This document shows, one piece after another, positions 2,473 to 48,378 of a DNA stretch of 64,000 bases. The stretch is from Cytophagales bacterium (GTDB lineage Bacteria; Bacteroidota; Bacteroidia; Cytophagales; Microscillaceae), in the NCBI GenBank assembly GCA_013298075.1, contig JAAFJG010000009.1, positions 1 through 64,000 on the forward strand, read 5' to 3'. The position numbers were made by a program, and so were the translations under genes. The notes beneath the pieces are model-generated. The model made no database searches, was not told where the DNA came from, and saw only the letters and a list, made by a program, of their open reading frames with translations. Position 1 is the stretch's first letter. Each line of letters begins with the position of its first letter.

Positions 2473-3186
2473 CTATTTTCGCATCATTGTTTCAAGACGT
2501 GCTTGATATTTTTTCGCATTATAATATTCGTTAGTATTTGGATATTCTCTTCCTACTTTTTCGTATATTTTTAATGCGTCTTCATTTTTCTTTGCTTTTT
2601 CGTAAGCCAACGCTAATTTCATCATATAAATTGGCGTAAATTGTTTATTTGATTTATAATCAACGGCTCTATTATAATTAGTAATTGCTTCTTCAAACTG
2701 ATTCAATTCCATATAAGCATCACCAATCAAACTATAAGCACGTGCTTGCACGAGCCAATCATTTCCTGAGAATTTTCGCAATCTATCAATCGCTTCTTTG
2801 AATTTTTTTTCTTTCAAATGGGCTACCCCTGAATAAAAATAAGCCATATTTGCTGCTTTACTTAACGGATAATTTTTAATTATCGCTTCAAAACCCAAAT
2901 AATTTCCATCACCTTTGATAGATTTTTTATAATCTTCTGCTTTCCACCAATATTCAGCAGCAAACATTTGTTCTTGTGCTTCACGTTCTTGCGAACCTTG
3001 CATATAATTAAATATAAAATATCCTGCAATAATAGCAACAACTAAACCAGCAACAATTCCAACGATGATTCGATTGCGGCTTATATATTGTTGTGTTTTG
3101 ACAAAACTTTCTAATGAATTTTCTTCTGTTTCATTTGATTCAATTTTTGGAACTTTTATCAAATCTACATTTTTTATTTTACTCAT
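2473..3186 (-). CDS. Membrane-anchored tetratricopeptide repeat protein
   Basis: The 237-residue protein has a short cytoplasmic acidic N-terminus, one transmembrane helix at about residues 39-61 (IIVGIVAGLVVAIIAGYFIF), and a C-terminal part made of TPR helices. Blocks such as MAYFYSGVAHLKEKKFKEAI, AYSLIGDAYMEL and AYEKAKKNEDALKIYEKV show the repeat. The topology and length resemble YfgM, the ancillary SecYEG-associated periplasmic protein, but I would not go beyond YfgM-like. It is transcribed alone, from a TACCTTTG promoter to the terminator at 2403-2437. Confidence 0.85.
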   Translation of the reverse strand: MSKIKNVDLIKVPKIESNETEENSLESFVKTQQYISRNRIIVGIVAGLVVAIIAGYFIFNYMQGSQEREAQEQMFAAEYWWKAEDYKKSIKGDGNYLGFEAIIKNYPLSKAANMAYFYSGVAHLKEKKFKEAIDRLRKFSGNDWLVQARAYSLIGDAYMELNQFEEAITNYNRAVDYKSNKQFTPIYMMKLALAYEKAKKNEDALKIYEKVGREYPNTNEYYNAKKYQARLETMMRK

Positions 3187-17838: not shown

Positions 17839-17906
17839 CAAGGTAATTGCAAATAGTGTTTTTGACATCAAAAAAATATTTACGTTCTATTCCAAAAAAA
17901 TGTATT

Positions 17907-19394
17907 ATGAAAAAAATATTTCTATCATTTTGTTTATTCGTTTGTTTTTCGGGCTGTATTTTTTCTAATTTACACGCATTTGATTTAAGAAAAACCTATA
18001 TCATCTCAAAAGATTCTTTAAAAAAAGATTCAATCTCCTATCTATTAAAAGATTTTATTCCTACACTCGATGTAGAGATGATAAAAGATAGATTGAGTTG
18101 TAGCCAAAGACAAATCAAACTTACTTACGCACCAGACGTACAAAAATGGATACATTTTTATACCGTCAAACAAAGAAATTATACTAAAACTATTTTAGAA
18201 AAAAGTACTTTCTATTTTCCGATTTTTGAGGAAGTTTTAAAAAGAAACAATATGCCCGACGAATTAAAATATTTATCTATCGTAGAATCTGCCCTCACTC
18301 CTTCTGCTGCCTCTTGGGCTGCTGCAGTAGGTTTATGGCAATTTATTCCTTCTACAGGCAAGCGTTTTGGATTGCATCAAGATGGATTTATAGATGAAAG
18401 AATGGATTTATACAAATCTACGCAAGCGGCTTGTGATTATTTAAAATATTTATATAATTATTTTGGAGATTGGCAATTAGCGTTGGCGGCTTATAATTGT
18501 GGCGAAGGTCGTGTGGGTTGGGCAGTGAAACAAGCAGGTGGAAAAGGAGCAGATTTTTGGAAAATTTATAACTTTTTGCCGTTGGAAACGCGCGGTTATG
18601 TACCTGCATTTATAGGTGTAACGTATGCAATGACGTATCACAAAGAACATTTTATTTTTGCTGAAAACGAAATGACTTTTATTCCTTCGGATACCATTCA
18701 CGTCAATCAATTTGTAAGCCTTGATGAATTTGCCAAACAAATCGAAGTGAGTAAAGAAGAATTAGAAAAATTAAATCCACATTTGAAACGCAAAGCAGTA
18801 CCAGCATATTCAAAAAATTATCCAATTCGTTATCCATCTCGTAAAAAAGAACATTTAGCAAGCAATCGCCACGCTATTTTACAAGCCTCTTCGCGTGCAA
18901 GTCGTAAAGATTTACCTTATACATTTTATCAAAAATCTACTCCGCCTGTTGTGCCTGTTTCTAATCCTGTGAACAATGCACAAACTTTAGCCACTACGAT
19001 AAAAGATAAAATAAAAATTACACATAAAGTTGTTTATGGTGAATCTTTGGGACTAATTGCGATGAAATACAATGTAAATACGGTTAATTTAGCGGTTTGG
19101 AATAATTTGAATGCTGGAATGATACATCCTAATCAACATATTGACGTGTGGGTTGCTCCTAATTCTAATGAAGCAAAATTAGTACAAAATACTACTAAAA
19201 CTGCTCCTACGGTTGCTTCTGTAGCATCTGCACCTAATGCAAAAAGATTACATACAATTCAATATGGTGATAATTTATGGGATATTTCTCGCAAATATGA
19301 TATTACGGTTGATGCCTTAAAAAGACATAACAATATGACAGAAAGAACAATGTTAGTACCGGGGCAAAAAATTTCTATTCCTGCCTCTAAATAA
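17907..19394 (+). CDS. Membrane-bound lytic murein transglycosylase D-like, with two LysM domains
   Basis: The 495-residue protein has an N-terminal signal with possible lipobox FSGC (or Sec cleavage after LHA). An SLT lysozyme-like domain follows, with catalytic Glu127 in IVESAL, the GLWQFIPSTGKRFGL block, and ALAAYNCGEGRV, then YVPAFIG. Two LysM modules bind peptidoglycan at about 372-416 (YGESLGLIAMKYNV) and 448-494 (YGDNLWDISRKYDI ... LVPGQKISIP). It cleaves the glycan strand with formation of 1,6-anhydro-MurNAc. The organisation is that of MltD. It has its own promoter and terminator. Confidence 0.92.
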   Translation: MKKIFLSFCLFVCFSGCIFSNLHAFDLRKTYIISKDSLKKDSISYLLKDFIPTLDVEMIKDRLSCSQRQIKLTYAPDVQKWIHFYTVKQRNYTKTILEKSTFYFPIFEEVLKRNNMPDELKYLSIVESALTPSAASWAAAVGLWQFIPSTGKRFGLHQDGFIDERMDLYKSTQAACDYLKYLYNYFGDWQLALAAYNCGEGRVGWAVKQAGGKGADFWKIYNFLPLETRGYVPAFIGVTYAMTYHKEHFIFAENEMTFIPSDTIHVNQFVSLDEFAKQIEVSKEELEKLNPHLKRKAVPAYSKNYPIRYPSRKKEHLASNRHAILQASSRASRKDLPYTFYQKSTPPVVPVSNPVNNAQTLATTIKDKIKITHKVVYGESLGLIAMKYNVNTVNLAVWNNLNAGMIHPNQHIDVWVAPNSNEAKLVQNTTKTAPTVASVASAPNAKRLHTIQYGDNLWDISRKYDITVDALKRHNNMTERTMLVPGQKISIPASK

Positions 19395-19751: not shown

Positions 19752-19878
19752 TTTGAATACAAAATGAAACTTCACACAAAAAAAATATTTTAATTATTAC
19801 ATAATTTGTTTTATTATGATTACTTTTGTAGTGCAATATTTTTAAACATACATAAAATGGATTTATTTCAAAATTATA
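19752..19878 (+). repeat. Truncated third copy of the type IIG promoter and first codons
   Basis: These 127 bases are repeated exactly at 19879-20005 and again at 23211-23337. They hold the promoter element TACTTTTG (19821-19828) and ATG 19857 followed by seven codons. The next copy then starts immediately, giving the peptide MDLFQNYI and a TGA stop. Confidence 0.9.
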
Positions 19879-19947
19879 TTTGAATACAAAATGAAACTTC
19901 ACACAAAAAAAATATTTTAATTATTACATAATTTGTTTTATTATGAT

Positions 19948-19955
19948 TACTTTTG
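19948..19955 (+). promoter_or_regulatory. -7 element TACTTTTG of the type IIG gene, copy 1
   Basis: It lies 36 bases before ATG 19984. Identical elements are at 19821-19828 (truncated leader) and 23280-23287 (copy 2). Because it lies downstream of the in-frame TTG at 19933, that TTG cannot be the start on a transcript made from this promoter. Confidence 0.55.
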
Positions 19956-19983
19956 TAGTGCAATATTTTTAAACATACATAAA

Positions 19984-22900
19984 ATGGATTTATTTCAAAA
20001 TTATATAAAAGAATTACAAGACACGCCCATCGACAAAATAACTGAACACTCAAAACGTTCAGCCTTAGAAAATTTATTAAAACAAATTGCAGAAGAAATG
20101 GTACATAAAATTGCTATTTTGCACGAACCTAAAAGAGAAAAAAACTTTGGCTCGCCTGACTTCAAAATATCACAATCCGAAAATATTATTGGTTATATTG
20201 AAACCAAAAAATTTGAAGAAAATTTAGATAAAACTTTAAAATCTGACCAAATTACAAAATATAAACAACTTTCTGATAACATTATTTTAACTAATTATTT
20301 AGAATTTATTTGGATAAAAAAAGGAGAAATAAACCAAAGAATAAACCTTTGTTTTTTAACTGATATCGAAAATAAAAAATTTCAATTAGATATATCAAAA
20401 GCAAACGAAGTCAAAAAACTTATCAAAGATTTTTTTTCGCAAGCCGCCATTGGCATTGATAGCACCCAAAAATTAGCAGAAGTTTTGGCATTGAGAGCAA
20501 GATATTTAAAAGATTTTATTTTTGATGAACTCCAATCACAAAATAAAAAACAACAAACAGGAAAATTATATGATTTATATGCAGCCTTTAAAAATTTCGT
20601 TTTTGATAATCTTACTATCAGCGAATTTTCAGATGCTTTTGCTCAAACTTTAGTATATGGATTATTTTTAGCCAAATTAAATGCCAAAACACAAGACATT
20701 AATTTATACAATGCCAAAAAATTTATTCCTATTTCTTTCAAATTATTAAAAGAACTCGTCAATTTTTTAGATGAACTAGATAATGAAGAATATAAACCAA
20801 TTCGATGGATAGTCGAAGAAGTTTTGACTGTGATGAATCATATTCAATTAGATAAAATCAATGAAAGTTTATCTTTCAAAAACGAAAAAAAAGACAAAGA
20901 TAATTTCACTATCAAAGACCCTTATGTTTATTTTTATGAAGATTTTTTAGCGGCGTATGATTATAATTTACGAAAAGCAAAAGGTGTTTATTATACGCCT
21001 CCTGCAGTCGTAAACTTTATTATTCGGGCTATAAACCATATTCTTGTCAATGATTTTAATATTAAAGATGGTTTTGCAGATAGAAAAAAAATAACTGTAT
21101 TAGATTTTGCGACAGGAACAGGAACATTTTTATTAGAAATTTTACAACAAATATTTAATACTTTGCCTGCTAATTCGGGTAAAAGGAAAGATATTATTTC
21201 GGAACATATTTTAAAAAATTTATTTGGATTCGAGTATATGATTGCGCCTTATACGGTCGCACATTTAAAATTATCTCAATTTTTGAAAGACCAAAATTAT
21301 GAAATGACAAGTGATGATGCTTTTCAAATTTTCCTTACAAATACGCTCGTTCCGATGGAAAAACAAAATAAAATTTCGTTATTACCTGCGTTATCAGAAG
21401 AAGTAACCAAAGCACAAAACGTAAAAGAAAAACCTATTTTAATCATTACAGGCAATCCGCCTTATAATAAAAAATCAAAAAATAATGGTACTTGGATAAC
21501 CGAATTGATAAAAGGACATGATATAAATGCCCAAGAAGAAAATAAAAATCAACCCAATTATTTTATGGTTGATGGCACGCGTATGAAAGAAAAACAAAAT
21601 TGGTTGCGTGATGATTATGTTAAATTTATTCGTTTTGCGCAATGGAAAATGCAAAATATTGAAAATGGCGTGATTGGAATTATTACTAATCATACTTTTT
21701 TAGATAATATTACTTTTCGAGGTATGCGACAAAGTTTGCTTAATTCTTTTGACCAATTATATTTTTTAGACTTGCACGGAAGTGCCAAACAAGAAGGAAA
21801 TATTCCTGATGGCAAAAAAGATGAAAATGTTTTTGATATTGAACAAGGCGTTTCTATTTCTTTTTTGGTTAAAAATAAAGGTAGCGAAAAAAAAGTATTT
21901 CATTCAGAAATGTGGGGAAGTAGATTTGATAAATATCGTCAATGTTTGAATAATTCTTTTGATACGATAGATTGGAAAGAAATTAAACCTATTTCGCCCA
22001 ACTATTTTTTCGTGCCTCGTTCTGATGAATTTAAAGAACAATATGATTCTTTTTGGTCTGTTACCAAAATTTTTAAAGTGTTTAGTTTGCCATTGATGAC
22101 AGGAAATGATAAAATTACAGTTCATTTTGATAAAAAATCACTTTTGGAAACGTTGCAAATATTCAAAGAAGAAAGTGTAGAAAATATTAAAAAATATTTT
22201 CAAATTAATGAAGAAAGTACAAATTGGACAATCAGCAAAGCAAAAAATGATGTAATTACTTCGAATAATTTTGAAAATAATATTACCACTATTAGTTATC
22301 GACTTTTTGACCAAAGAATTACTTATTTTACAGGAAAATCTTCGGGATTTCATAGCCGCCCAAGTACAATATCAAAACATTTATTAAACGAAAATATAGG
22401 TTTACTTTTACCAAGACAAATATCAAGACGTAGTTTTCAACACGTTTTTTGTGTGAATGAAATTCCTGATATGTGTTGTTTTTCAGCAGAAACTAAAGGA
22501 GCAAATCAATTATTTCCTCTGTATTTATATAATGAAGAAATGAAAAATGGTAAAAAAATCGTAGTAAAAGAAACAAATTTTTCGAAAGAATTTATAGAAT
22601 TTTTAACAAAAAATTATCAAAATATAACCTTTACACCTGAACAAATGATAGGTTATATATACGCTATTTTGCATAGTGATACGTATCGAAAAAAATATTA
22701 TCAAGACCTAAAAATTGATTTTGCGCGTATTCCTTTTACAAAATCGACAGAAATTTTTCTATTGATTTCGAAACTTGGTATTGAATTAATCGATACGCAT
22801 TTATCCAAAAAAATTCCTGATATAAACATAGGTGCGTTTATTGGTCAAGGCAATAATTTAGTCGAAAAAATAGATTTTGACGAGAAATTACAACGAATTT

Positions 22901-23115
22901 ATATCAATAAAAATCAATATTTTGAAAAAGTAAATAGCCAAATTTATGAATTTAAAATTGGTGGTTATGAACCGCTTGATAAATATTTAAAAAATAGAAA
23001 GGAAAAAATATTAACTATTGATGAAATTGAAAATGTAGAAAATATCATTAAAATTTTAGATTTTACCATTGCTCAAATGAAAAAAATAGAAGAAGAAACA
23101 AAAAAATGGATATAA
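19984..23115 (+). CDS. Type IIG single-chain restriction-modification enzyme, copy 1
   Basis: The 1043-residue protein combines nuclease, adenine methyltransferase and specificity parts. The N-terminal PD-(D/E)XK nuclease shows Pro58-Asp59 ... Glu73-Thr-Lys75 (SPDF...YIETKK). A helical connector precedes the N6-adenine methyltransferase core, which has motif I LDFATGTGTF near residue 375 and motif IV NPPY at 491-494. ITNHTFLDN and a C-terminal half (about 640-1043) would hold the target recognition domain. No helicase domain is present, which separates it from the larger type ISP (LlaBIII-like) proteins. The enzyme should both methylate and cut at one recognition site. It is transcribed alone and duplicated downstream; the next gene is the second copy. 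Confidence 0.88.
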   Translation: MDLFQNYIKELQDTPIDKITEHSKRSALENLLKQIAEEMVHKIAILHEPKREKNFGSPDFKISQSENIIGYIETKKFEENLDKTLKSDQITKYKQLSDNIILTNYLEFIWIKKGEINQRINLCFLTDIENKKFQLDISKANEVKKLIKDFFSQAAIGIDSTQKLAEVLALRARYLKDFIFDELQSQNKKQQTGKLYDLYAAFKNFVFDNLTISEFSDAFAQTLVYGLFLAKLNAKTQDINLYNAKKFIPISFKLLKELVNFLDELDNEEYKPIRWIVEEVLTVMNHIQLDKINESLSFKNEKKDKDNFTIKDPYVYFYEDFLAAYDYNLRKAKGVYYTPPAVVNFIIRAINHILVNDFNIKDGFADRKKITVLDFATGTGTFLLEILQQIFNTLPANSGKRKDIISEHILKNLFGFEYMIAPYTVAHLKLSQFLKDQNYEMTSDDAFQIFLTNTLVPMEKQNKISLLPALSEEVTKAQNVKEKPILIITGNPPYNKKSKNNGTWITELIKGHDINAQEENKNQPNYFMVDGTRMKEKQNWLRDDYVKFIRFAQWKMQNIENGVIGIITNHTFLDNITFRGMRQSLLNSFDQLYFLDLHGSAKQEGNIPDGKKDENVFDIEQGVSISFLVKNKGSEKKVFHSEMWGSRFDKYRQCLNNSFDTIDWKEIKPISPNYFFVPRSDEFKEQYDSFWSVTKIFKVFSLPLMTGNDKITVHFDKKSLLETLQIFKEESVENIKKYFQINEESTNWTISKAKNDVITSNNFENNITTISYRLFDQRITYFTGKSSGFHSRPSTISKHLLNENIGLLLPRQISRRSFQHVFCVNEIPDMCCFSAETKGANQLFPLYLYNEEMKNGKKIVVKETNFSKEFIEFLTKNYQNITFTPEQMIGYIYAILHSDTYRKKYYQDLKIDFARIPFTKSTEIFLLISKLGIELIDTHLSKKIPDINIGAFIGQGNNLVEKIDFDEKLQRIYINKNQYFEKVNSQIYEFKIGGYEPLDKYLKNRKEKILTIDEIENVENIIKILDFTIAQMKKIEEETKKWI

Positions 23116-23315
23116 AAAAACTAATATTTACGAAACGCATTAAAAAATCTATCTAAAAATTTTTTTTTGCATAAACTTTCTAAGAATAGTAGTGATTAAA
23201 AAAGTTCATTTTTGAATACAAAATGAAACTTCACACAAAAAAAATATTTTAATTATTACATAATTTGTTTTATTATGATTACTTTTGTAGTGCAATATTT
23301 TTAAACATACATAAA

Positions 23316-26300
23316 ATGGATTTATTTCAAAATTATATAAAAGAATTACAAGACACGCCCATCGACAAAATAACTGAACACTCAAAACGTTCAGCCTTAG
23401 AAAATTTATTAAAACAAATTGCAGAAGAAATGGTACATAAAATTGCTATTTTGCACGAACCTAAAAGAGAAAAAAACTTTGGCTCGCCTGACTTCAAAAT
23501 ATCACAATCCGAAAATATTATTGGTTATATTGAAACCAAAAAATTTGAAGAAAATTTAGATAAAACTTTAAAATCTGACCAAATTACAAAATATAAACAA
23601 CTTTCTGATAACATTATTTTAACTAATTATTTAGAATTTATTTGGATAAAAAAAGGAGAAATAAACCAAAGAATAAACCTTTGTTTTTTAACTGATATCG
23701 AAAATAAAAAATTTCAATTAGATATATCAAAAGCAAACGAAGTCAAAAAACTTATCAAAGATTTTTTTTCGCAAGCCGCCATTGGCATTGATAGCACCCA
23801 AAAATTAGCAGAAGTTTTGGCATTGAGAGCAAGATATTTAAAAGATTTTATTTTTGATGAACTCCAATCACAAAATAAAAAACAACAAACAGGAAAATTA
23901 TATGATTTATATGCAGCCTTTAAAAATTTCGTTTTTGATAATCTTACTATCAGCGAATTTTCAGATGCTTTTGCTCAAACTTTAGTATATGGATTATTTT
24001 TAGCCAAATTAAATGCCAAAACACAAGACATTAATTTATACAATGCCAAAAAATTTATTCCTATTTCTTTCAAATTATTAAAAGAACTCGTCAATTTTTT
24101 AGATGAACTAGATAATGAAGAATATAAACCAATTCGATGGATAGTCGAAGAAGTTTTGACTGTGATGAATCATATTCAATTAGATAAAATCAATGAAAGT
24201 TTATCTTTCAAAAACGAAAAAAAAGACAAAGATAATTTCACTATCAAAGACCCTTATGTTTATTTTTATGAAGATTTTTTAGCGGCGTATGATTATAATT
24301 TACGAAAAGCAAAAGGTGTTTATTATACGCCTCCTGCAGTCGTAAACTTTATTATTCGGGCTATAAACCATATTCTTGTCAATGATTTTAATATTAAAGA
24401 TGGTTTTGCAGATAGAAAAAAAATAACTGTATTAGATTTTGCGACAGGAACAGGAACATTTTTATTAGAAATTTTACAACAAATATTTAATACTTTGCCT
24501 GCTAATTCGGGTAAAAGGAAAGATATTATTTCGGAACATATTTTAAAAAATTTATTTGGATTCGAGTATATGATTGCGCCTTATACGGTCGCACATTTAA
24601 AATTATCTCAATTTTTGAAAGACCAAAATTATGAAATGACAAGTGATGATGCTTTTCAAATTTTCCTTACAAATACGCTCGTTCCGATGGAAAAACAAAA
24701 TAAAATTTCGTTATTACCTGCGTTATCAGAAGAAGTAACCAAAGCACAAAACGTAAAAGAAAAACCTATTTTAATCATTACAGGCAATCCGCCTTATAAT
24801 AAAAAATCAAAAAATAATGGTACTTGGATAACCGAATTGATAAAAGGACATGATATAAATGCCCAAGAAGAAAATAAAAATCAACCCAATTATTTTATGG
24901 TTGATGGCACGCGTATGAAAGAAAAACAAAATTGGTTGCGTGATGATTATGTTAAATTTATTCGTTTTGCGCAATGGAAAATGCAAAATATTGAAAATGG
25001 CGTGATTGGAATTATTACTAATCATACTTTTTTAGATAATATTACTTTTCGAGGTATGCGACAAAGTTTGCTTAATTCTTTTGACCAATTATATTTTTTA
25101 GACTTGCACGGAAGTGCCAAACAAGAAGGAAATATTCCTGATGGCAAAAAAGATGAAAATGTTTTTGATATTGAACAAGGCGTTTCTATTTCTTTTTTGG
25201 TTAAAAATAAAGGTAGCGAAAAAAAAGTATTTCATTCAGAAATGTGGGGAAGTAGATTTGATAAATATCGTCAATGTTTGAATAATTCTTTTGATACGAT
25301 AGATTGGAAAGAAATTAAACCTATTTCGCCCAACTATTTTTTCGTGCCTCGTTCTGATGAATTTAAAGAACAATATGATTCTTTTTGGTCTGTTACCAAA
25401 ATTTTTAAAGTGTTTAGTTTGCCATTGATGACAGGAAATGATAAAATTACAGTTCATTTTGATAAAAAATCACTTTTGGAAACGTTGCAAATATTCAAAG
25501 AAGAAAGTGTAGAAAATATTAAAAAATATTTTCAAATTAATGAAGAAAGTACAAATTGGACAATCAGCAAAGCAAAAAATGATGTAATTACTTCGAATAA
25601 TTTTGAAAATAATATTACCACTATTAGTTATCGACTTTTTGACCAAAGAATTACTTATTTTACAGGAAAATCTTCGGGATTTCATAGCCGCCCAAGTACA
25701 ATATCAAAACATTTATTAAACGAAAATATAGGTTTACTTTTACCAAGACAAATATCAAGACGTAGTTTTCAACACGTTTTTTGTGTGAATGAAATTCCTG
25801 ATATGTGTTGTTTTTCAGCAGAAACTAAAGGAGCAAATCAATTATTTCCTCTGTATTTATATAATGAAGAAATGAAAAATGGTAAAAAAATCGTAGTAAA
25901 AGAAACAAATTTTTCGAAAGAATTTATAGAATTTTTAACAAAAAATTATCAAAATATAACCTTTACACCTGAACAAATGATAGGTTATATATACGCTATT
26001 TTGCATAGTGATACGTATCGAAAAAAATATTATCAAGACCTAAAAATTGATTTTGCGCGTATTCCTTTTACAAAATCGACAGAAATTTTTCTATTGATTT
26101 CGAAACTTGGTATTGAATTAATCGATACGCATTTATCCAAAAAAATTCCTGATATAAACATAGGTGCGTTTATTGGTCAAGGCAATAATTTAGTCGAAAA
26201 AATAGATTTTGACGAGAAATTACAACGAATTTATATCAATAAAAATCAATATTTTGAAAAAGTAAATAGCCAAATTTATGAATTTAAAATTGGTGGTTAT

Positions 26301-26447
26301 GAACCGCTTGATAAATATTTAAAAAATAGAAAGGAAAAAATATTAACTATTGATGAAATTGAAAATGTAGAAAATATCATTAAAATTTTAGATTTTACCA
26401 TTGCTCAAATGAAAAAAATTGAAGAAGAAACAACAAAATGGATATAA
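23316..26447 (+). CDS. Type IIG single-chain restriction-modification enzyme, copy 2
   Basis: Reading the two 1043-residue proteins side by side, I see one difference: a Lys in copy 1 is Thr in copy 2, four residues from the C-terminus. The nuclease (Asp59, Glu73, Lys75), motif I and NPPY are intact, so both copies look functional. It carries its own copy of the promoter at 23280-23287. Downstream, after 54 bases, comes a DUF2721 gene unrelated to restriction. Such identity points to a very recent duplication, active gene conversion, or a near-identical assembly duplication. The two 3' substitutions and the different downstream flanks argue against a simple assembly copy. Confidence 0.88.
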   Translation: MDLFQNYIKELQDTPIDKITEHSKRSALENLLKQIAEEMVHKIAILHEPKREKNFGSPDFKISQSENIIGYIETKKFEENLDKTLKSDQITKYKQLSDNIILTNYLEFIWIKKGEINQRINLCFLTDIENKKFQLDISKANEVKKLIKDFFSQAAIGIDSTQKLAEVLALRARYLKDFIFDELQSQNKKQQTGKLYDLYAAFKNFVFDNLTISEFSDAFAQTLVYGLFLAKLNAKTQDINLYNAKKFIPISFKLLKELVNFLDELDNEEYKPIRWIVEEVLTVMNHIQLDKINESLSFKNEKKDKDNFTIKDPYVYFYEDFLAAYDYNLRKAKGVYYTPPAVVNFIIRAINHILVNDFNIKDGFADRKKITVLDFATGTGTFLLEILQQIFNTLPANSGKRKDIISEHILKNLFGFEYMIAPYTVAHLKLSQFLKDQNYEMTSDDAFQIFLTNTLVPMEKQNKISLLPALSEEVTKAQNVKEKPILIITGNPPYNKKSKNNGTWITELIKGHDINAQEENKNQPNYFMVDGTRMKEKQNWLRDDYVKFIRFAQWKMQNIENGVIGIITNHTFLDNITFRGMRQSLLNSFDQLYFLDLHGSAKQEGNIPDGKKDENVFDIEQGVSISFLVKNKGSEKKVFHSEMWGSRFDKYRQCLNNSFDTIDWKEIKPISPNYFFVPRSDEFKEQYDSFWSVTKIFKVFSLPLMTGNDKITVHFDKKSLLETLQIFKEESVENIKKYFQINEESTNWTISKAKNDVITSNNFENNITTISYRLFDQRITYFTGKSSGFHSRPSTISKHLLNENIGLLLPRQISRRSFQHVFCVNEIPDMCCFSAETKGANQLFPLYLYNEEMKNGKKIVVKETNFSKEFIEFLTKNYQNITFTPEQMIGYIYAILHSDTYRKKYYQDLKIDFARIPFTKSTEIFLLISKLGIELIDTHLSKKIPDINIGAFIGQGNNLVEKIDFDEKLQRIYINKNQYFEKVNSQIYEFKIGGYEPLDKYLKNRKEKILTIDEIENVENIIKILDFTIAQMKKIEEETTKWI

Positions 26448-26501
26448 AAAAACAATATTTTATCAACAAAAAAAACAAAAATTATCCTCAAATTAAAAAA
26501 T

Positions 26502-26906
26502 ATGGACATCAATATAAATACGCCATCTTTGCTTTTTCCTGCTATTTCTTTGCTTTTATTGGCATATACAAATCGTTTTTTGGCGATTGCAAGTTTGGTG
26601 AGAAGTTTGCATCGAAGTTATCAAGAAAATCCTGATATTCATTTGGTCATCCAGATTCGTTCTTTGAGAAGGCGACTTTTGATGATTAGAAATATGCAAT
26701 TTTTGGGTACATTGAGTCTTTTGTTGTGTATCATTTCTATGGCTGCTATTTTTTGGAAAAATACATATTTAGGTGGCTATTTATTTGCCATTAGTTTAGT
26801 TTTGATGATGTTTTCTTTGTTTTTTTCTTTGTGGGAATTGTTGGTTTCTATCAAAGCCTTAGATATTGAATTACAAGATTTGGCGAAAAAAAAGAGAGAT
26901 AATTAA
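26502..26906 (+). CDS. DUF2721 family membrane protein
   Basis: The 134-residue protein opens with PSLLFPAISLLLLAYTNRFLAIASLVRSLH, the signature of the DUF2721 family. A polar stretch with RSLRRRLLMIRNMQF and two further transmembrane helices (LGTLSLLLCIISMAAIF, YLFAISLVLMMFSLFF) follow. The length is normal. Function unknown. I prefer ATG 26502 to the overlapping frame starting at 26438, which lacks the family's start and is only an open reading frame shadow. Confidence 0.85.
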   Translation: MDININTPSLLFPAISLLLLAYTNRFLAIASLVRSLHRSYQENPDIHLVIQIRSLRRRLLMIRNMQFLGTLSLLLCIISMAAIFWKNTYLGGYLFAISLVLMMFSLFFSLWELLVSIKALDIELQDLAKKKRDN

Positions 26907-41197: not shown

Positions 41198-42055
41198 ATG
41201 AGCAAAAAACTAATTCGTTTTGACTGGGCAATGAAAAAATTGCTACGCCACAAAGCTAACTTCGATATTTTGGAAGGGTTTTTATCAGAGTTACTTCGTT
41301 TTGATGTAACGATTGAAAGTATTTTGGAAAGTGAAGGCAATAAACAAGATGAGTACGATAAATACAATCGAGTAGATATTTTGGTAAAAAGCCAAAACGG
41401 TGAATTGATGTTAGTCGAAGTTCAGAATGACTCCGAAGTAGATTACTTTCAACGTATGTTATATGGCGTTTCCAAATTAGTAACTGAATACATCAAAGAG
41501 GGCGAACTTTATGGAACAATCAAAAAAATTTATTCTATCAATATTGTTTATTTTGGCTTAGGACAAGGCAAAGACTATGTTTATGAATATAGAGGAGAGT
41601 TTATAGGCTTGCATACAAACGATATTTTGCTACCCACTATTTTGCAAAATCAAAGTTATAAAGCAGAAAAAATATCAGATATTTTTCCGAAATATTATTT
41701 ATTGAAAGTGAATAACTTTGATAAAGTAGCGGAAGATACGCTCGATGAATGGGTTTATTTTCTAAAAAATAGCGAAGTAAAAGATAATTTCAAAGCAAAA
41801 GGTTTAGATAAAGCAATAGAAAAGTTGCGTTATGAAAATTTGACAGACGAAGAAAAAAAAATGTATGACCGTTCTCAAGAAAATAGACGCATTGAAATGA
41901 GTGTCGAATATACAGCTATAATTGAAGCCAAACATGAACTTTCAATTAAAATGGCTAAAAAAGCAATCAAAAAAGGTTTTGACAACGAAACCATCGCAGA
42001 TTTAACTGATTTAAGCATTGAACATATACAGCAGTTACGTAACGAAAAAATATAA
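41198..42055 (+). CDS. Rpn-family PD-(D/E)XK nuclease/putative transposase, array copy 1
   Basis: The 285-residue protein belongs to the Rpn recombination-promoting nuclease group (PF12784). The core shows VDILVKSQNGELMLVEVQND, where the Asp and the E-x-Q form the metal-dependent nuclease site, then YFQRMLYGVSKLVTEYI and KIYSINIVYFGL. The last 50 residues (EAKHELSIKMAKKAIKKGFDNETIADLTDLSIEHIQQLR) form the helix-turn-helix-like tail. E. coli RpnA relatives cut DNA and stimulate recA-independent recombination. Only six bases separate it from copy 2, and the 864-bp unit repeats exactly three times. Confidence 0.85.
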   Translation: MSKKLIRFDWAMKKLLRHKANFDILEGFLSELLRFDVTIESILESEGNKQDEYDKYNRVDILVKSQNGELMLVEVQNDSEVDYFQRMLYGVSKLVTEYIKEGELYGTIKKIYSINIVYFGLGQGKDYVYEYRGEFIGLHTNDILLPTILQNQSYKAEKISDIFPKYYLLKVNNFDKVAEDTLDEWVYFLKNSEVKDNFKAKGLDKAIEKLRYENLTDEEKKMYDRSQENRRIEMSVEYTAIIEAKHELSIKMAKKAIKKGFDNETIADLTDLSIEHIQQLRNEKI

Positions 42056-42061
42056 TTTAAT

Positions 42062-42919
42062 ATGAGCAAAAAACTAATTCGTTTTGACTGGGCAATGAAA
42101 AAATTGCTACGCCACAAAGCCAACTTTGATATTTTGGAAGGCTTTTTATCAGAATTACTTCGTTTTGATGTAACGATTGAAAGCATTTTAGAAAGCGAAG
42201 GCAACAAACAAGATGAGTATGATAAATACAATCGAGTAGATATTTTAGTAAAAAGCCAAAACGGTGAATTGATGTTAGTCGAAGTTCAGAATGACTCCGA
42301 AGTAGATTACTTTCAACGTATGTTATATGGTGTCTCGAAATTAGTAACTGAATACATCAAAGAAGGTGAACTTTACGGAACAATCAAAAAAATTTATTCT
42401 GTCAATATTGTTTATTTTGGCTTAGGACAAGGCAAAGACTATGTTTATGAATACAGAGGAGAGTTTGTAGGCTTACATACAAACGATATTTTGCTACCTA
42501 CTATTCTGCAAAATCAAAGTTATAAAGCAGAAAAAATATCTGATATTTTTCCGAAATATTATTTATTGAAAGTGAATAACTTCGATAAAGTAGCCGAAGA
42601 CACGCTTGATGAGTGGGTTTATTTCCTGAAAAATAGCGAAGTAAAAGATAATTTCAAAGCAAAAGGTTTAGATAAAGCAATAGAAAAATTGCGTTATGAA
42701 AATTTGACAGATGAAGAAAAAAAGATGTACGACCGTTCTCAAGAAAATAGACGCATTGAAATGAGTGTGGAATATACAGCCAAAATTGAAGCCGAACATG
42801 CACATAATATTAAAATTGCAAAAAAAATGATTTTAGCAGGTTCGGAAAATAATTTTATTGTCCAAATTACAGGCTTAACCAATAAACATATAGAGCAACT
42901 TCGTAACGAAAAAATATAA
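42062..42919 (+). CDS. Rpn-family PD-(D/E)XK nuclease/putative transposase, array copy 2
   Basis: The body is the same 285-residue protein as copy 1, with two conservative changes (S/V at KIYSVN and I/V at EFVGLH). The nuclease residues in RVDILVKS...VEVQ are intact. The C-terminal tail is quite different: EAEHAHNIKIAKKMILAGSENNFIVQITGLTNKHIEQLR. DNA changes in the body are mostly silent third-position substitutions, while the tail diverges at many non-silent positions. This suggests exchange or selection acting on the tail. Six bases separate it from copy 3. Confidence 0.85.
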   Translation: MSKKLIRFDWAMKKLLRHKANFDILEGFLSELLRFDVTIESILESEGNKQDEYDKYNRVDILVKSQNGELMLVEVQNDSEVDYFQRMLYGVSKLVTEYIKEGELYGTIKKIYSVNIVYFGLGQGKDYVYEYRGEFVGLHTNDILLPTILQNQSYKAEKISDIFPKYYLLKVNNFDKVAEDTLDEWVYFLKNSEVKDNFKAKGLDKAIEKLRYENLTDEEKKMYDRSQENRRIEMSVEYTAKIEAEHAHNIKIAKKMILAGSENNFIVQITGLTNKHIEQLRNEKI

Positions 42920-42925
42920 TTTAAT

Positions 42926-43783
42926 ATGAGCAAAAAACTAATTCGTTTTGACTGGGCAATGAAAAAATTGCTACGTCACAAAGCTAATTTTGATATTTTG
43001 GAAGGTTTTTTATCGGAGTTACTTCGTTTTGATGTAACGATTGAAAGCATTTTAGAAAGCGAAGGCAACAAACAAGATGAGTATGATAAATACAATCGAG
43101 TAGATATTTTGGTAAAAAGTCAAAACGGTGAATTGATGTTAGTCGAAGTTCAGAATGACTCCGAAGTAGATTACTTTCAACGTATGTTATATGGCGTTTC
43201 CAAATTAGTAACTGAATATATCAAAGAAGGCGAACTTTACGGAACAATCAAAAAAATTTACTCTATCAATATCGTTTATTTCGGCTTAGGACAAGGCAAA
43301 GACTATGTTTATGAGTACAGAGGAGAGTTTGTGGGCTTACATACAAACGATATTTTGCTACCAACTATTTTGCAAAATCAAAGTTATAAAGCAGAAAAAA
43401 TATCAGATATTTTTCCGAAATATTATTTATTGAAAGTGAATAACTTCGATAAAGTAGCCGAAGACACGCTAGATGAGTGGGTTTATTTCCTGAAAAATAG
43501 CGAAGTAAAAGATAATTTCAAAGCAAAAGGTTTAGATAAAGCAATAGAAAAATTACGTTATGAAAATTTGACAAATGAAGAAAAAAAAATGTATGACCGT
43601 TCTCAAGAAAATAGACGCATTGAAATGAGTGTGGAATATACAGCCAAAATTGAGGCTGAGCATGGACGTGATATTAAAATTGCTAAAAAAGCAATTAAAA
43701 AAGGTTTTGACAACGAAACCATCGCAGATTTAACTGATTTAACCATTGAACATATAGAACAACTTCGTAGTGAAATGAAATAA
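42926..43783 (+). CDS. Rpn-family PD-(D/E)XK nuclease/putative transposase, array copy 3
   Basis: This third 285-residue copy has an intact body and nuclease residues. Its tail is a mosaic. EAEHGRDIKIAKK begins like copy 2, while KAIKKGFDNETIADLTDLTIEHIEQLR matches copy 1. The last residues are SEMK in place of NEKI. The mosaic implies recombination between array members. After its stop the intergenic DNA becomes AT-rich, and no fourth copy or remnant follows. Confidence 0.85.
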   Translation: MSKKLIRFDWAMKKLLRHKANFDILEGFLSELLRFDVTIESILESEGNKQDEYDKYNRVDILVKSQNGELMLVEVQNDSEVDYFQRMLYGVSKLVTEYIKEGELYGTIKKIYSINIVYFGLGQGKDYVYEYRGEFVGLHTNDILLPTILQNQSYKAEKISDIFPKYYLLKVNNFDKVAEDTLDEWVYFLKNSEVKDNFKAKGLDKAIEKLRYENLTNEEKKMYDRSQENRRIEMSVEYTAKIEAEHGRDIKIAKKAIKKGFDNETIADLTDLTIEHIEQLRSEMK

Positions 43784-46482: not shown

Positions 46483-47439
46483 ATGAAAAAACAAAATAAA
46501 CTTAATAAAGTAACAATTCATGAATCTACGAATACAACTAATTTAGCTGATTTAGCTAAAACTGATTTTATCACATTAAAAACTACAAAGTCAAGATTTG
46601 TATTTATAATGATAGCTATTTTAAATCTTTTAGCCGTTGGATTCAATATTTTTTGGTTAGAAGTATTAACAAAACCTTTTATTACTTTACTTCTAATATT
46701 GATTATTTTATCTACTTTTGCTAATATAATTTTAATAGTCAAAATGGCACAAACGGCAATGAGTGGAACAGATGAAAATGGTCAAGTATTCATAAATCCT
46801 GTTATAACAGATCTTAGAATAATGGCAGTAAAACCAATTTGGTACATTTCTATTTCTTTATTATTTTGTTTTTTAGGAGATGTATTTTTATTATTCAATG
46901 CTACTTTTTTGGTTGGATTGGTTTGTTTTTTGATAGGACATTATAATTTTTGGCGTTTTTTATGGATAAATTCTGATAAAAGAGAAGGTTTGGTGATGAA
47001 ACAAGTTTGGTTATCGATTCCATTTTTAATTTATTTAGGTTTGTTGTTATATTATATTTTGCCTCATCTCAAAAACGATATTATTTTACAAATTGCCGTT
47101 ATTATTTATGGAAGTTTTTTGAGTATTTCAGCCATTTTAGCGTTAAATCGTTTTGGTTCTACCAATACTGCCAGTTTTGTATATGTTTTGATTGGTTTTG
47201 TATTTTTTATTATTTCGGATACTTGGATTGCGTGGCAAAAATTTGTCCTCAAAACAGATACTATATTTGATGGTTTGGGCGTAATGAGTACGTATATTTT
47301 GGCTTTATATTTTATTGTAGAAGGTGTAATTAAAGGTATAAAATCTAAAAGTTTGGAATATTTTCGCAAAGAAATAGAAGAAATAAAAGAAAATGAAGGA
47401 TATAAAGCTAAAAAAATCAAAAAAAATAAATATTCTTAA
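46483..47439 (+). CDS. YhhN family membrane protein (lysoplasmalogenase-like)
   Basis: The 318-residue protein has eight predicted transmembrane helices after a cytoplasmic N-terminus of about 45 residues. LFCFLGDVFLLF and FIISDTWIAWQKF carry the conserved Asp-containing helices of the YhhN/TMEM86 family, and STYILALYFIVEGV is its typical last helix. TMEM86 members hydrolyse the vinyl-ether bond of lysoplasmalogen; the bacterial substrate here is unknown. It is followed after six bases by a paralogue and then by a peptide exporter, all on one strand. Confidence 0.75.
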   Translation: MKKQNKLNKVTIHESTNTTNLADLAKTDFITLKTTKSRFVFIMIAILNLLAVGFNIFWLEVLTKPFITLLLILIILSTFANIILIVKMAQTAMSGTDENGQVFINPVITDLRIMAVKPIWYISISLLFCFLGDVFLLFNATFLVGLVCFLIGHYNFWRFLWINSDKREGLVMKQVWLSIPFLIYLGLLLYYILPHLKNDIILQIAVIIYGSFLSISAILALNRFGSTNTASFVYVLIGFVFFIISDTWIAWQKFVLKTDTIFDGLGVMSTYILALYFIVEGVIKGIKSKSLEYFRKEIEEIKENEGYKAKKIKKNKYS

Positions 47440-47445
47440 TAAATT

Positions 47446-48378
47446 ATGAAAAAGAAAAACCTGATTAAAATACCCAAAAAAGACGAATTTATAATTTATT
47501 TTGATAAAGAAGACTTTCTTGCATCAAATAATTCTATTGATACAGAAGCTTCTCTTGTGTCAGATACTCCTAAATTAAGAAGAATTTTTTTATTCCTTAT
47601 TACATTAAGCATTTTATCTATCATTTTAAATATTTTTTGGTTAGAAATGCTTACAAAAATTATTATTCCATTGAATTTGATTTTAATAGTTGTAGTTTCT
47701 TTTGAAAAAATGACTAATTTGCTAGTGGAAATGGAATATTTTATGAAAACCAAAGACTTTATATATATTAAAAATAAAGATTCTTTTCGTGTTTTTGCGA
47801 TAAATTTAAACGGAATGCAAACTAAAATTACTTTCATAATTGTTGGATTATTACTTTATTGTATAGCAAATATATTTTTATCGTTTGATGCTACTTTTGG
47901 ACTTTCACTTTTTTTCTTTTTAGTAACACAATATTTTTTAAATCGTTTTTTACTGATGGTTTTTAAAGAAGATGAAAGTTTAGAAAGATATAATCTTTTA
48001 TTATCAGTACCACTTTTAATTTATGTAGGTTTTGTCTTGTACTATGTTTTACCTATGTTTCAAAACAATATTTTATTACAAATAATAATAACTATATATC
48101 AATTTTCTTTGGCTTTTTCAGTATTTGTAGCATTATGTAGATATTCTTGTAGTCCTCTAAAAAGTTATATATATACGCTGATAGGTGTTATATTTTTAGT
48201 AGTTTTTAACCTTTGGGATTTTTATCAAATATCTACACTCAAAATAAATATGTGGCATAAATTAGGAATAAATATTTCTTATATTTTAGGCTTATATTTT
48301 ATGGTTGAAGGGCTTATAGATGAAATAACAAAACGAATAATTGTTTGCCAAGAAGACAAAAAACGAGCAGAAGAATAA
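47446..48378 (+). CDS. Divergent YhhN-like membrane protein, paralogue of the previous gene
   Basis: The 310-residue protein shares the helix layout and many phrases with its upstream neighbour (NIFWLEMLTK, PLLIYVGFVLYYVLP, NILLQI, ISYILGLYFMVEGL). The two acidic sites are lost: GDVFLLF has become ANIFLSF, and SDTWIAW has become FNLWDFY. It therefore probably lacks the enzymatic function of the family, and may be a partner subunit or a degenerating duplicate. Six bases separate it from the upstream gene, so the pair is co-transcribed. Confidence 0.7.
   Translation: MKKKNLIKIPKKDEFIIYFDKEDFLASNNSIDTEASLVSDTPKLRRIFLFLITLSILSIILNIFWLEMLTKIIIPLNLILIVVVSFEKMTNLLVEMEYFMKTKDFIYIKNKDSFRVFAINLNGMQTKITFIIVGLLLYCIANIFLSFDATFGLSLFFFLVTQYFLNRFLLMVFKEDESLERYNLLLSVPLLIYVGFVLYYVLPMFQNNILLQIIITIYQFSLAFSVFVALCRYSCSPLKSYIYTLIGVIFLVVFNLWDFYQISTLKINMWHKLGINISYILGLYFMVEGLIDEITKRIIVCQEDKKRAEE

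What the first reader, a model, noticed from the sequence alone, without database searches (positions are those of the whole stretch)
19879..26447. Two nearly identical head-to-tail type IIG restriction-modification genes
Promoter, gene and 3' spacer are duplicated with a period of exactly 3,332 bp. On reading I find only two base changes in the gene, both in the last dozen codons, and one amino-acid change (Lys to Thr). The downstream flanks differ. Both copies keep the nuclease residues (Asp59, Glu73, Lys75) and NPPY. Two full copies of the same specificity are uncommon, because they give no new recognition site. They may raise dosage, act as a reservoir for target-domain switching, or be a very recent event.
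Basis: partly seen in the sequence, partly recalled or inferred. Interest (0 to 1): 0.72.

Follow-up and report, generated by a model that had tools for sequence, protein, structure and literature searches.

The report
Tandem twin restriction-modification genes, near identical
A bacterium carries two almost identical anti-phage "cut and label DNA" genes head to tail, and the same genome holds more tandem sets of such genes whose DNA-recognition parts look reshuffled, so the twins look like an early or homogenised stage of a growing set.

Summary
The two copies are in the assembly: period 3,332 bp, two base differences in the gene, one amino-acid change (Lys1040Thr). So "exactly two copies" is not secure, but the unique 89-bp spacer joining one gene's end to the next promoter requires at least one head-to-tail junction. 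The protein is a Type IIG enzyme (nuclease, methyltransferase, specificity domain in one chain), nearest in whole-length fold to DrdV.

The same genome has tandem runs of single-chain restriction-modification genes in seven further places, from at least two unrelated families. In the best-studied one, first halves are 87-96% identical while two half-specificity domains vary independently; all four combinations of two half-domain types occur. An unrelated pair shares a 1,806-bp identical block but has a replaced specificity segment.

I read the window pair as an undiversified or re-homogenised tandem array, fed by homologous recombination. Tandem duplication also looks common in this genome generally. 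Activity, copy number and switching are untested. New variant of a known kind.

The parts
17847..19394 (+). upstream neighbour: lytic transglycosylase with LysM domains (not part of the system)
   Evidence: Pfam SLT and LysM hits
19752..19878 (+). 127-bp perfect extra copy of promoter and first codons; judged an unmerged k=127 contig overlap, not biology
   Evidence: contig ends sharing 126/127 bp and a second lag-127 duplicate on C88
19879..19983 (+). promoter region of copy 1, with a TACTTTTG box that fits the Bacteroidota -7 motif TAnnTTTG (motif recalled)
   Evidence: identical to 23211-23315; sequence
19984..23115 (+). copy 1, Type IIG restriction-modification enzyme, 1,043 aa (P0001)
23122..23210 (.). 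unique spacer that joins the end of copy 1 to the promoter of copy 2; requires at least one head-to-tail junction
   Evidence: no second copy in own genome; no match to the outer flanks at the repeat lag
23211..23315 (+). promoter region of copy 2
23316..26447 (+). copy 2, same enzyme with Lys1040Thr (P0002)
26502..26906 (+). downstream neighbour: DUF2721 membrane protein; its relatives in two same-genus drafts (G001, G002) have other neighbours
   Evidence: Pfam; stretches compared (the G002 contig is only 4,237 bp)

Best explanation
The pair is a small tandem array of a self-contained cassette (own promoter plus one gene) for a Type IIG restriction-modification enzyme: one protein that methylates host DNA at a recognition site and cuts DNA that lacks the mark. 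Homologous recombination between tandem cassettes makes and removes copies and overwrites one with the other, so copies stay near identical; when a copy picks up a different specificity segment, the array gains a new recognition site while the body stays shared. The window pair is an array whose specificity domains are still, or again, the same; its present effect would be dosage and back-up, and raw material for later specificity exchange. Shown: tandem copies in the assembly, intact motifs and fold, arrays elsewhere in the genome with shared bodies and separately varying half-specificity domains. Inferred: restriction activity, recombination as the cause, any benefit.
For: Tandem near-identity. 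PADLOC REase_MTase_IIG E=7.9e-261; Pfam Type_ISP_C and MmeI_Mtase; D59, E73, K75 and N491-P-P-Y494 invariant in the 18 sequences aligned, P0001 included; model pLDDT 83.2 aligns over its whole length with the Type IIG enzyme DrdV. Own genome: arrays on C76 (3 genes), C85 (3), C72 (2), C136 (2, one cut by the contig end); all 7 junctions read, one on contig C38 included, are 44-45 bp with the same TAACTTTG box. Among the nine genes complete there, the first 510 alignment columns are 87-96% identical and the specificity region 26-70%. Half-domain combinations A-a, A-b, B-a, B-b all occur (C76b, C136b, C72a, C72b). Unrelated Type IIG pair on C80: 1,806-bp exact block, rest of the gene 93-100% by 60-column windows, specificity segment 32-55%. 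In another Bacteroidota MAG (L083) two tandem genes of the window subfamily are 3-28% identical over the specificity windows and 55-92% elsewhere except the first window.
Against: No expression, methylation or cleavage data. Both window copies have the same specificity, so diversification is not seen at this locus. The spacer matches neither flank, which a simple fresh duplication would predict. The assembly cannot give copy number. Body sharing in the arrays is not uniform: C76c and C85c carry a different segment at columns 540-640 (66-71% to the others, 94% to each other). Two of the four C104 tandem genes lack the N-terminal part where a nuclease would lie. Tandem duplication seems common in this genome also for other genes.
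Confidence: 0.6

Rival explanations
1. A very recent, functionally neutral tandem duplication in a genome that duplicates many genes in tandem; no role in specificity change.
For: Adjacent same-strand pairs at 90% or more identity: 4 in 36 unmasked own stretches (461,792 bases), three of them PDDEXK_2 family genes, against 0 of 396 adjacent pairs in 80 loci of other genomes. The window itself has a tandem PDDEXK_2 triplet.
Against: The spacer does not continue either flank; the same genome shows recombined specificity halves in tandem Type IIG genes. The comparison is biased: my stretches are contig starts, where repeats gather, and most control loci are from metagenome bins, which tend to lose recent repeats.
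Confidence: 0.22
2. Copy number is wrong: the true state is three or more tandem copies, or one chromosomal copy plus an excised circle of gene and spacer.
For: k=127 graph behaviour; a loop with one entry and one exit can be printed as two copies whatever the number (general knowledge of assembly graphs).
Against: None decisive; read coverage is not available here.
Confidence: 0.12
3. Pure assembly artefact: a single gene.
For: What looks like a join artefact sits directly upstream.
Against: The unique spacer links a gene end to a promoter, and the two gene ends differ by two bases and lead into different sequence; a single copy gives no source for this, short of a mixture of strains.
Confidence: 0.04

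Closest known systems
DrdV (PDB 7lo5, 7lvv), Type IIG enzyme
   Same: Single chain with nuclease, helical part, methyltransferase and specificity domain (domain names recalled); model aligns over residues 1-1043, 887 aligned, Z 31.1
   Different: About 20% identity; rmsd 19 A over the whole chain, so domain placement differs or is mispredicted
Borrelia/Borreliella plasmid enzymes annotated 'type ISP' (NC_000956, which I recall as lp56 with BBQ67)
   Same: Full-length relatives, 39.5% (NC_000956) to 42.7% (B. turicatae) identity; bbe02 and bbq67 products reported to modify and restrict DNA (PMC11546952, passages)
   Different: One place per record in the 20 records listed, so not tandem there
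Type ISP enzymes LlaGI and LlaBIII (PDB 5ffj, 4xqk)
   Same: Methyltransferase and specificity part, model residues 160-1043, Z 32.5-32.7
   Different: No helicase hit here; 1,043 residues against chain numbering up to 1,569-1,577
Tandem amplification of restriction-modification units by unequal crossing-over (Kobayashi group)
   Same: Head-to-tail copies of a unit; stated in PMC3031569 (passages); [quoted passage not shown]
   Different: There for units flanked by direct repeats; here the outer flanks do not match
Specificity-domain movement and reassortment (DOMO; PMC3077401, abstract and section 8)
   Same: Half-domains TRD1 and TRD2 reassorted by recombination, also in a Type IIG system
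   Different: There among alleles of different H. pylori strains and in a separate S gene; here among whole-enzyme genes of one genome, many of them in tandem

Membership tests
Type IIG restriction-modification enzyme | PD-(D/E)XK nuclease and adenine methyltransferase in one polypeptide | tested here: met
   D59, E73, K75, D374, G378 and N491-Y494 invariant in 18 aligned sequences; alpha-beta elements at 25-112 in the model; PADLOC IIG best hit. No Pfam nuclease hit
Type IIG restriction-modification enzyme | C-terminal specificity domain in the same chain | tested here: met
   Pfam Type_ISP_C residues 695-1032, E=1.4e-71
Type IIG restriction-modification enzyme | Methylates its site and cuts at a fixed distance | not testable with these tools
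   no biochemical or methylome data
Type ISP enzyme | Helicase motor between nuclease and methyltransferase | tested here: not met
   no helicase Pfam hit at E 0.01; with the nuclease in residues 1-159, LlaBIII/LlaGI alignment begins at model 160-163 and chain 715-718, leaving no room for the motor
MmeI (Type IIL) family | MmeI_N, helical spacer and MmeI_TRD domains | tested here: inconclusive
   only MmeI_Mtase hit, E=8.5e-8; MmeI structure 5hr4 aligns at Z 18.9 over 159-1043 with 12% identity
Invertible specificity locus (hsdS type) | inverted repeats around specificity segments | tested here: inconclusive
   no inverted repeat of 30 bp or more in 15-32 kb; shorter ones not tested
Tandem multiplication of a restriction-modification unit | head-to-tail copies of the unit | tested here: met
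   in the assembly; unique spacer
Tandem multiplication of a restriction-modification unit | copy number varies by homologous recombination | not testable with these tools
   needs reads or strains

The most novel reading that the evidence does not exclude
This bacterium runs a genome-wide specificity repertoire: families of single-chain restriction-modification genes kept as tandem cassettes with shared bodies and interchangeable half-specificity domains, so that ordinary recombination keeps making, deleting and re-pairing recognition specificities without any dedicated invertase; identical twins such as the window pair are the newborn or homogenised state.
Probability: 0.35. Interest if true: 0.8.

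Novelty: new variant of a known kind. Interest (0 to 1): 0.6.

Why it matters
Restriction-modification diversity is usually described between strains at one locus or as inverting specificity genes. Tandem whole-enzyme arrays with exchanged half-domains inside one genome would be another route, directly testable by methylome sequencing: each array gene predicts its own motif, and clones should differ. It would also give natural sets of enzymes with matched bodies and different half-domains for working out the recognition code.

Tried and rejected
Long target duplication (about 100 bp, reported for moving restriction-modification systems) as the cause of the 127-bp repeat: rejected, because the period equals contig overlaps of this assembly and recurs on C88. 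Contig C38 as an excised circle (84-bp end overlap): not accepted, its ends lie in stretches shared by several array genes. Insertion at a conserved site: the flanking genes were not seen together in the stretches fetched from G001, G002 and G009, so no empty site could be shown. Prophage or plasmid carriage: two weak phage records; 324 plasmid records, all below 60% identity. Census over 291 genomes could not count arrays, since at most two candidates per genome were scored; I used a 26-genome run instead, the other 25 picked because they had matches.

Literature: ten searches. From titles and starts of abstracts, in lists partly cut at 15-20 rows, I recognised no paper on tandem Type IIG arrays within a genome; some of the ten were aimed at other points, and most subscription papers are not held. 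PMC6602927 (passages) was checked because it holds 'tandemly' and 'type IIG'; the tandem objects there are prophages. NCBIfam gave no hit for P0001.

Full report
Observation. Two copies lie head to tail with a lag of 3,332 bp. The matching run is 19879-23121 against 23211-26453, 3,243 bp with two mismatches: 23088 (A/T, silent, codon 1035) and 23102 (A/C, Lys1040Thr). The ATG at 19984 and 23316 gives 1,043 aa. The 89-bp spacer 23122-23210 has no second copy in the genome, so the 3' spacer is not duplicated.

An assembly artefact next door. Directly upstream stands a perfect 127-bp tandem copy of the promoter and first codons. It starts where the left flank and the spacer converge on the repeat. 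I tested 75 contig ends of this genome against 54 own stretches (660,425 bases, window included). Eight ends belong to masked contigs and are dropped. Of the other 67, 10 share exactly 126 bp (6) or 127 bp (4) with another stretch, 15 share other lengths from 53 to 217 bp, and the rest share under 50. In the same stretches, at lags of 30-600 and with the match at least as long as the lag, the only other perfect two-copy tandem of that size also has lag 127, on C88 inside another tandem gene pair; short-period satellites on C9 and C17 are set aside. I conclude that the 127-bp copy is an unmerged overlap of a k=127 short-read assembly. Hence copy number is uncertain, but the unique spacer and the two differing gene ends need at least one true head-to-tail junction.

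What the protein is. PADLOC gives a Type IIG model at E=7.9e-261; Pfam gives Type_ISP_C and a weaker MmeI methyltransferase hit, with no helicase or nuclease model; NCBIfam gives none. The AlphaFold2 model (pLDDT 83.2, pTM 0.62) aligns with DrdV over its whole length (rmsd 19 A, so not as one rigid body) and with LlaGI/LlaBIII from residue 160 on. I call it a Type IIG enzyme and not Type ISP, despite that label on its plasmid relatives in Borrelia.

The genome around it. A protein search of the own genome found many relatives. One subfamily, 35-38% identical to the window pair over the longer matched segments, forms head-to-tail arrays: three genes on C76, three on C85, two on C72, two on C136 (one cut by the contig end), with a single diverged gene on C65 and pieces on C38 and C134. 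The 7 junctions read are 44-45 bp long and carry the same box. Among the nine complete genes of C72, C76, C85 and C136, the first 510 alignment columns are 87-96% identical and the specificity region 26-70%; the C65 gene is 69-71% to the other complete genes in the first part. The body is not uniform: at columns 540-640, C76c and C85c are 94% alike but 66-71% to the rest. Split in two, the specificity region falls, by my reading of the identity table, into types that combine freely: C76b (A,a), C136b (A,b), C72a (B,a), C72b (B,b); same-type pairs are 62% (A), 93% (B), 87% (a) and 84% (b), cross-type pairs 34-43%. The longest exact runs shared by these four are 65-90 bp, below k, except C72a-C76b with 134 bp at bases 3031-3164, near the 3' end and outside the half-domains, so direct mis-joins at k=127 are an unlikely cause of the mosaic. 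Other array pairs do share exact runs over 127 bp (C85a-C85b, C85a-C85c, C85b-C85c among them), and I rest nothing on those.

Other families do the same. I took 40 own-genome stretches by contig number, not by content (36 unmasked, 461,792 bases). They turned up a tandem pair on C80 of an Eco57I/TaqI_C type: 95% identical proteins, a 1,806-bp exact block, 93-100% in the other windows of the gene, and a replaced specificity segment at 32-55%. That is the pattern that gene conversion within an older pair would leave. C104 has four such genes in tandem (the two middle ones without the N-terminal part), C28 two (one cut by the contig end), and C1 two copies of a two-gene unit whose large genes are 81% identical. 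So tandem runs of single-chain genes lie in seven further places (C76, C85, C72, C136, C80, C104, C28), with C1 as a two-gene case.

How unusual. Of 26 genomes searched with an array protein, the own genome alone shows two or more near-complete copies head to tail in the listed matches; G033, G048, G101 and G126 show broken or partial matches close together. The other 25 were picked because they had matches, many are drafts of hundreds of contigs, and 28 of 46 own candidates were scored. Among 108 loci of other genomes scanned, two had adjacent copies: L083 (two full) and L102 (one full, one partial); many loci are too short to show a neighbour. Adjacent duplicates at 90% or more: 4 in the 36 own stretches against 0 of 396 adjacent pairs in 80 other-genome loci. 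Three of the four are PDDEXK_2 genes, and one of these lies at the C88 join. This comparison is biased: my stretches start at contig ends, where repeats gather, and most control loci are from metagenome bins. With that caution, tandem duplication looks common in this genome in general, which makes the pair less special by itself and more one instance of a genome-wide habit.

Mechanism. Shown: tandem cassettes in the assembly, intact enzyme motifs, shared bodies with recombined half-specificity domains elsewhere in the genome. Inferred: homologous recombination as the agent, restriction activity, benefit through dosage or new specificities. A fresh simple duplication should leave the spacer continuous with one outer flank; it is not, so an older, homogenised pair is at least as likely.

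Known work. Tandem amplification of restriction-modification units and insertion with long target duplications are described (PMC3031569 and PMC3874152, passages); reassortment and movement of half-domains, also in a Type IIG system, is described for H. pylori (PMC3077401, abstract and section 8; PMC3983042, passages). I recognised no description of within-genome tandem arrays of whole Type IIG genes in ten searches of the held library, which lacks most subscription papers.

Noticed in passing
41198-43783: Three head-to-tail 285-aa PDDEXK_2 (nuclease-transposase family) genes, 92-96% identical, period 864 bp, with changes concentrated in the last 160 bases.
   Followed up: partly
L182:6577-8273, L209:1854-3633, L213:1894-3555: Further tandem PDDEXK_2 pairs in the same genome at 94-99% identity; the L209 pair holds the second lag-127 join.
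   Followed up: partly
L219:4105-13309: Four Eco57I/TaqI_C genes in tandem on C104, 2-15 bp apart; the two middle ones lack the N-terminal part.
   Followed up: partly
L220:5379-17157: Duplicated two-gene unit on C1: Eco57I-type methylase (1,336 and 1,328 aa, 81%) each with an SMC/AAA ATPase (543 and 578 aa, 25%).
   Followed up: partly
L081:9842-10011: By eye, a 19-bp copy of the gene's own 3' end stands upstream of the start in the 67%-identical relative, perhaps a fossil of a lost tandem copy (sequence).
   Followed up: no
46483-48378: Two adjacent membrane-protein genes 36% identical, 6 bp apart.
   Followed up: no
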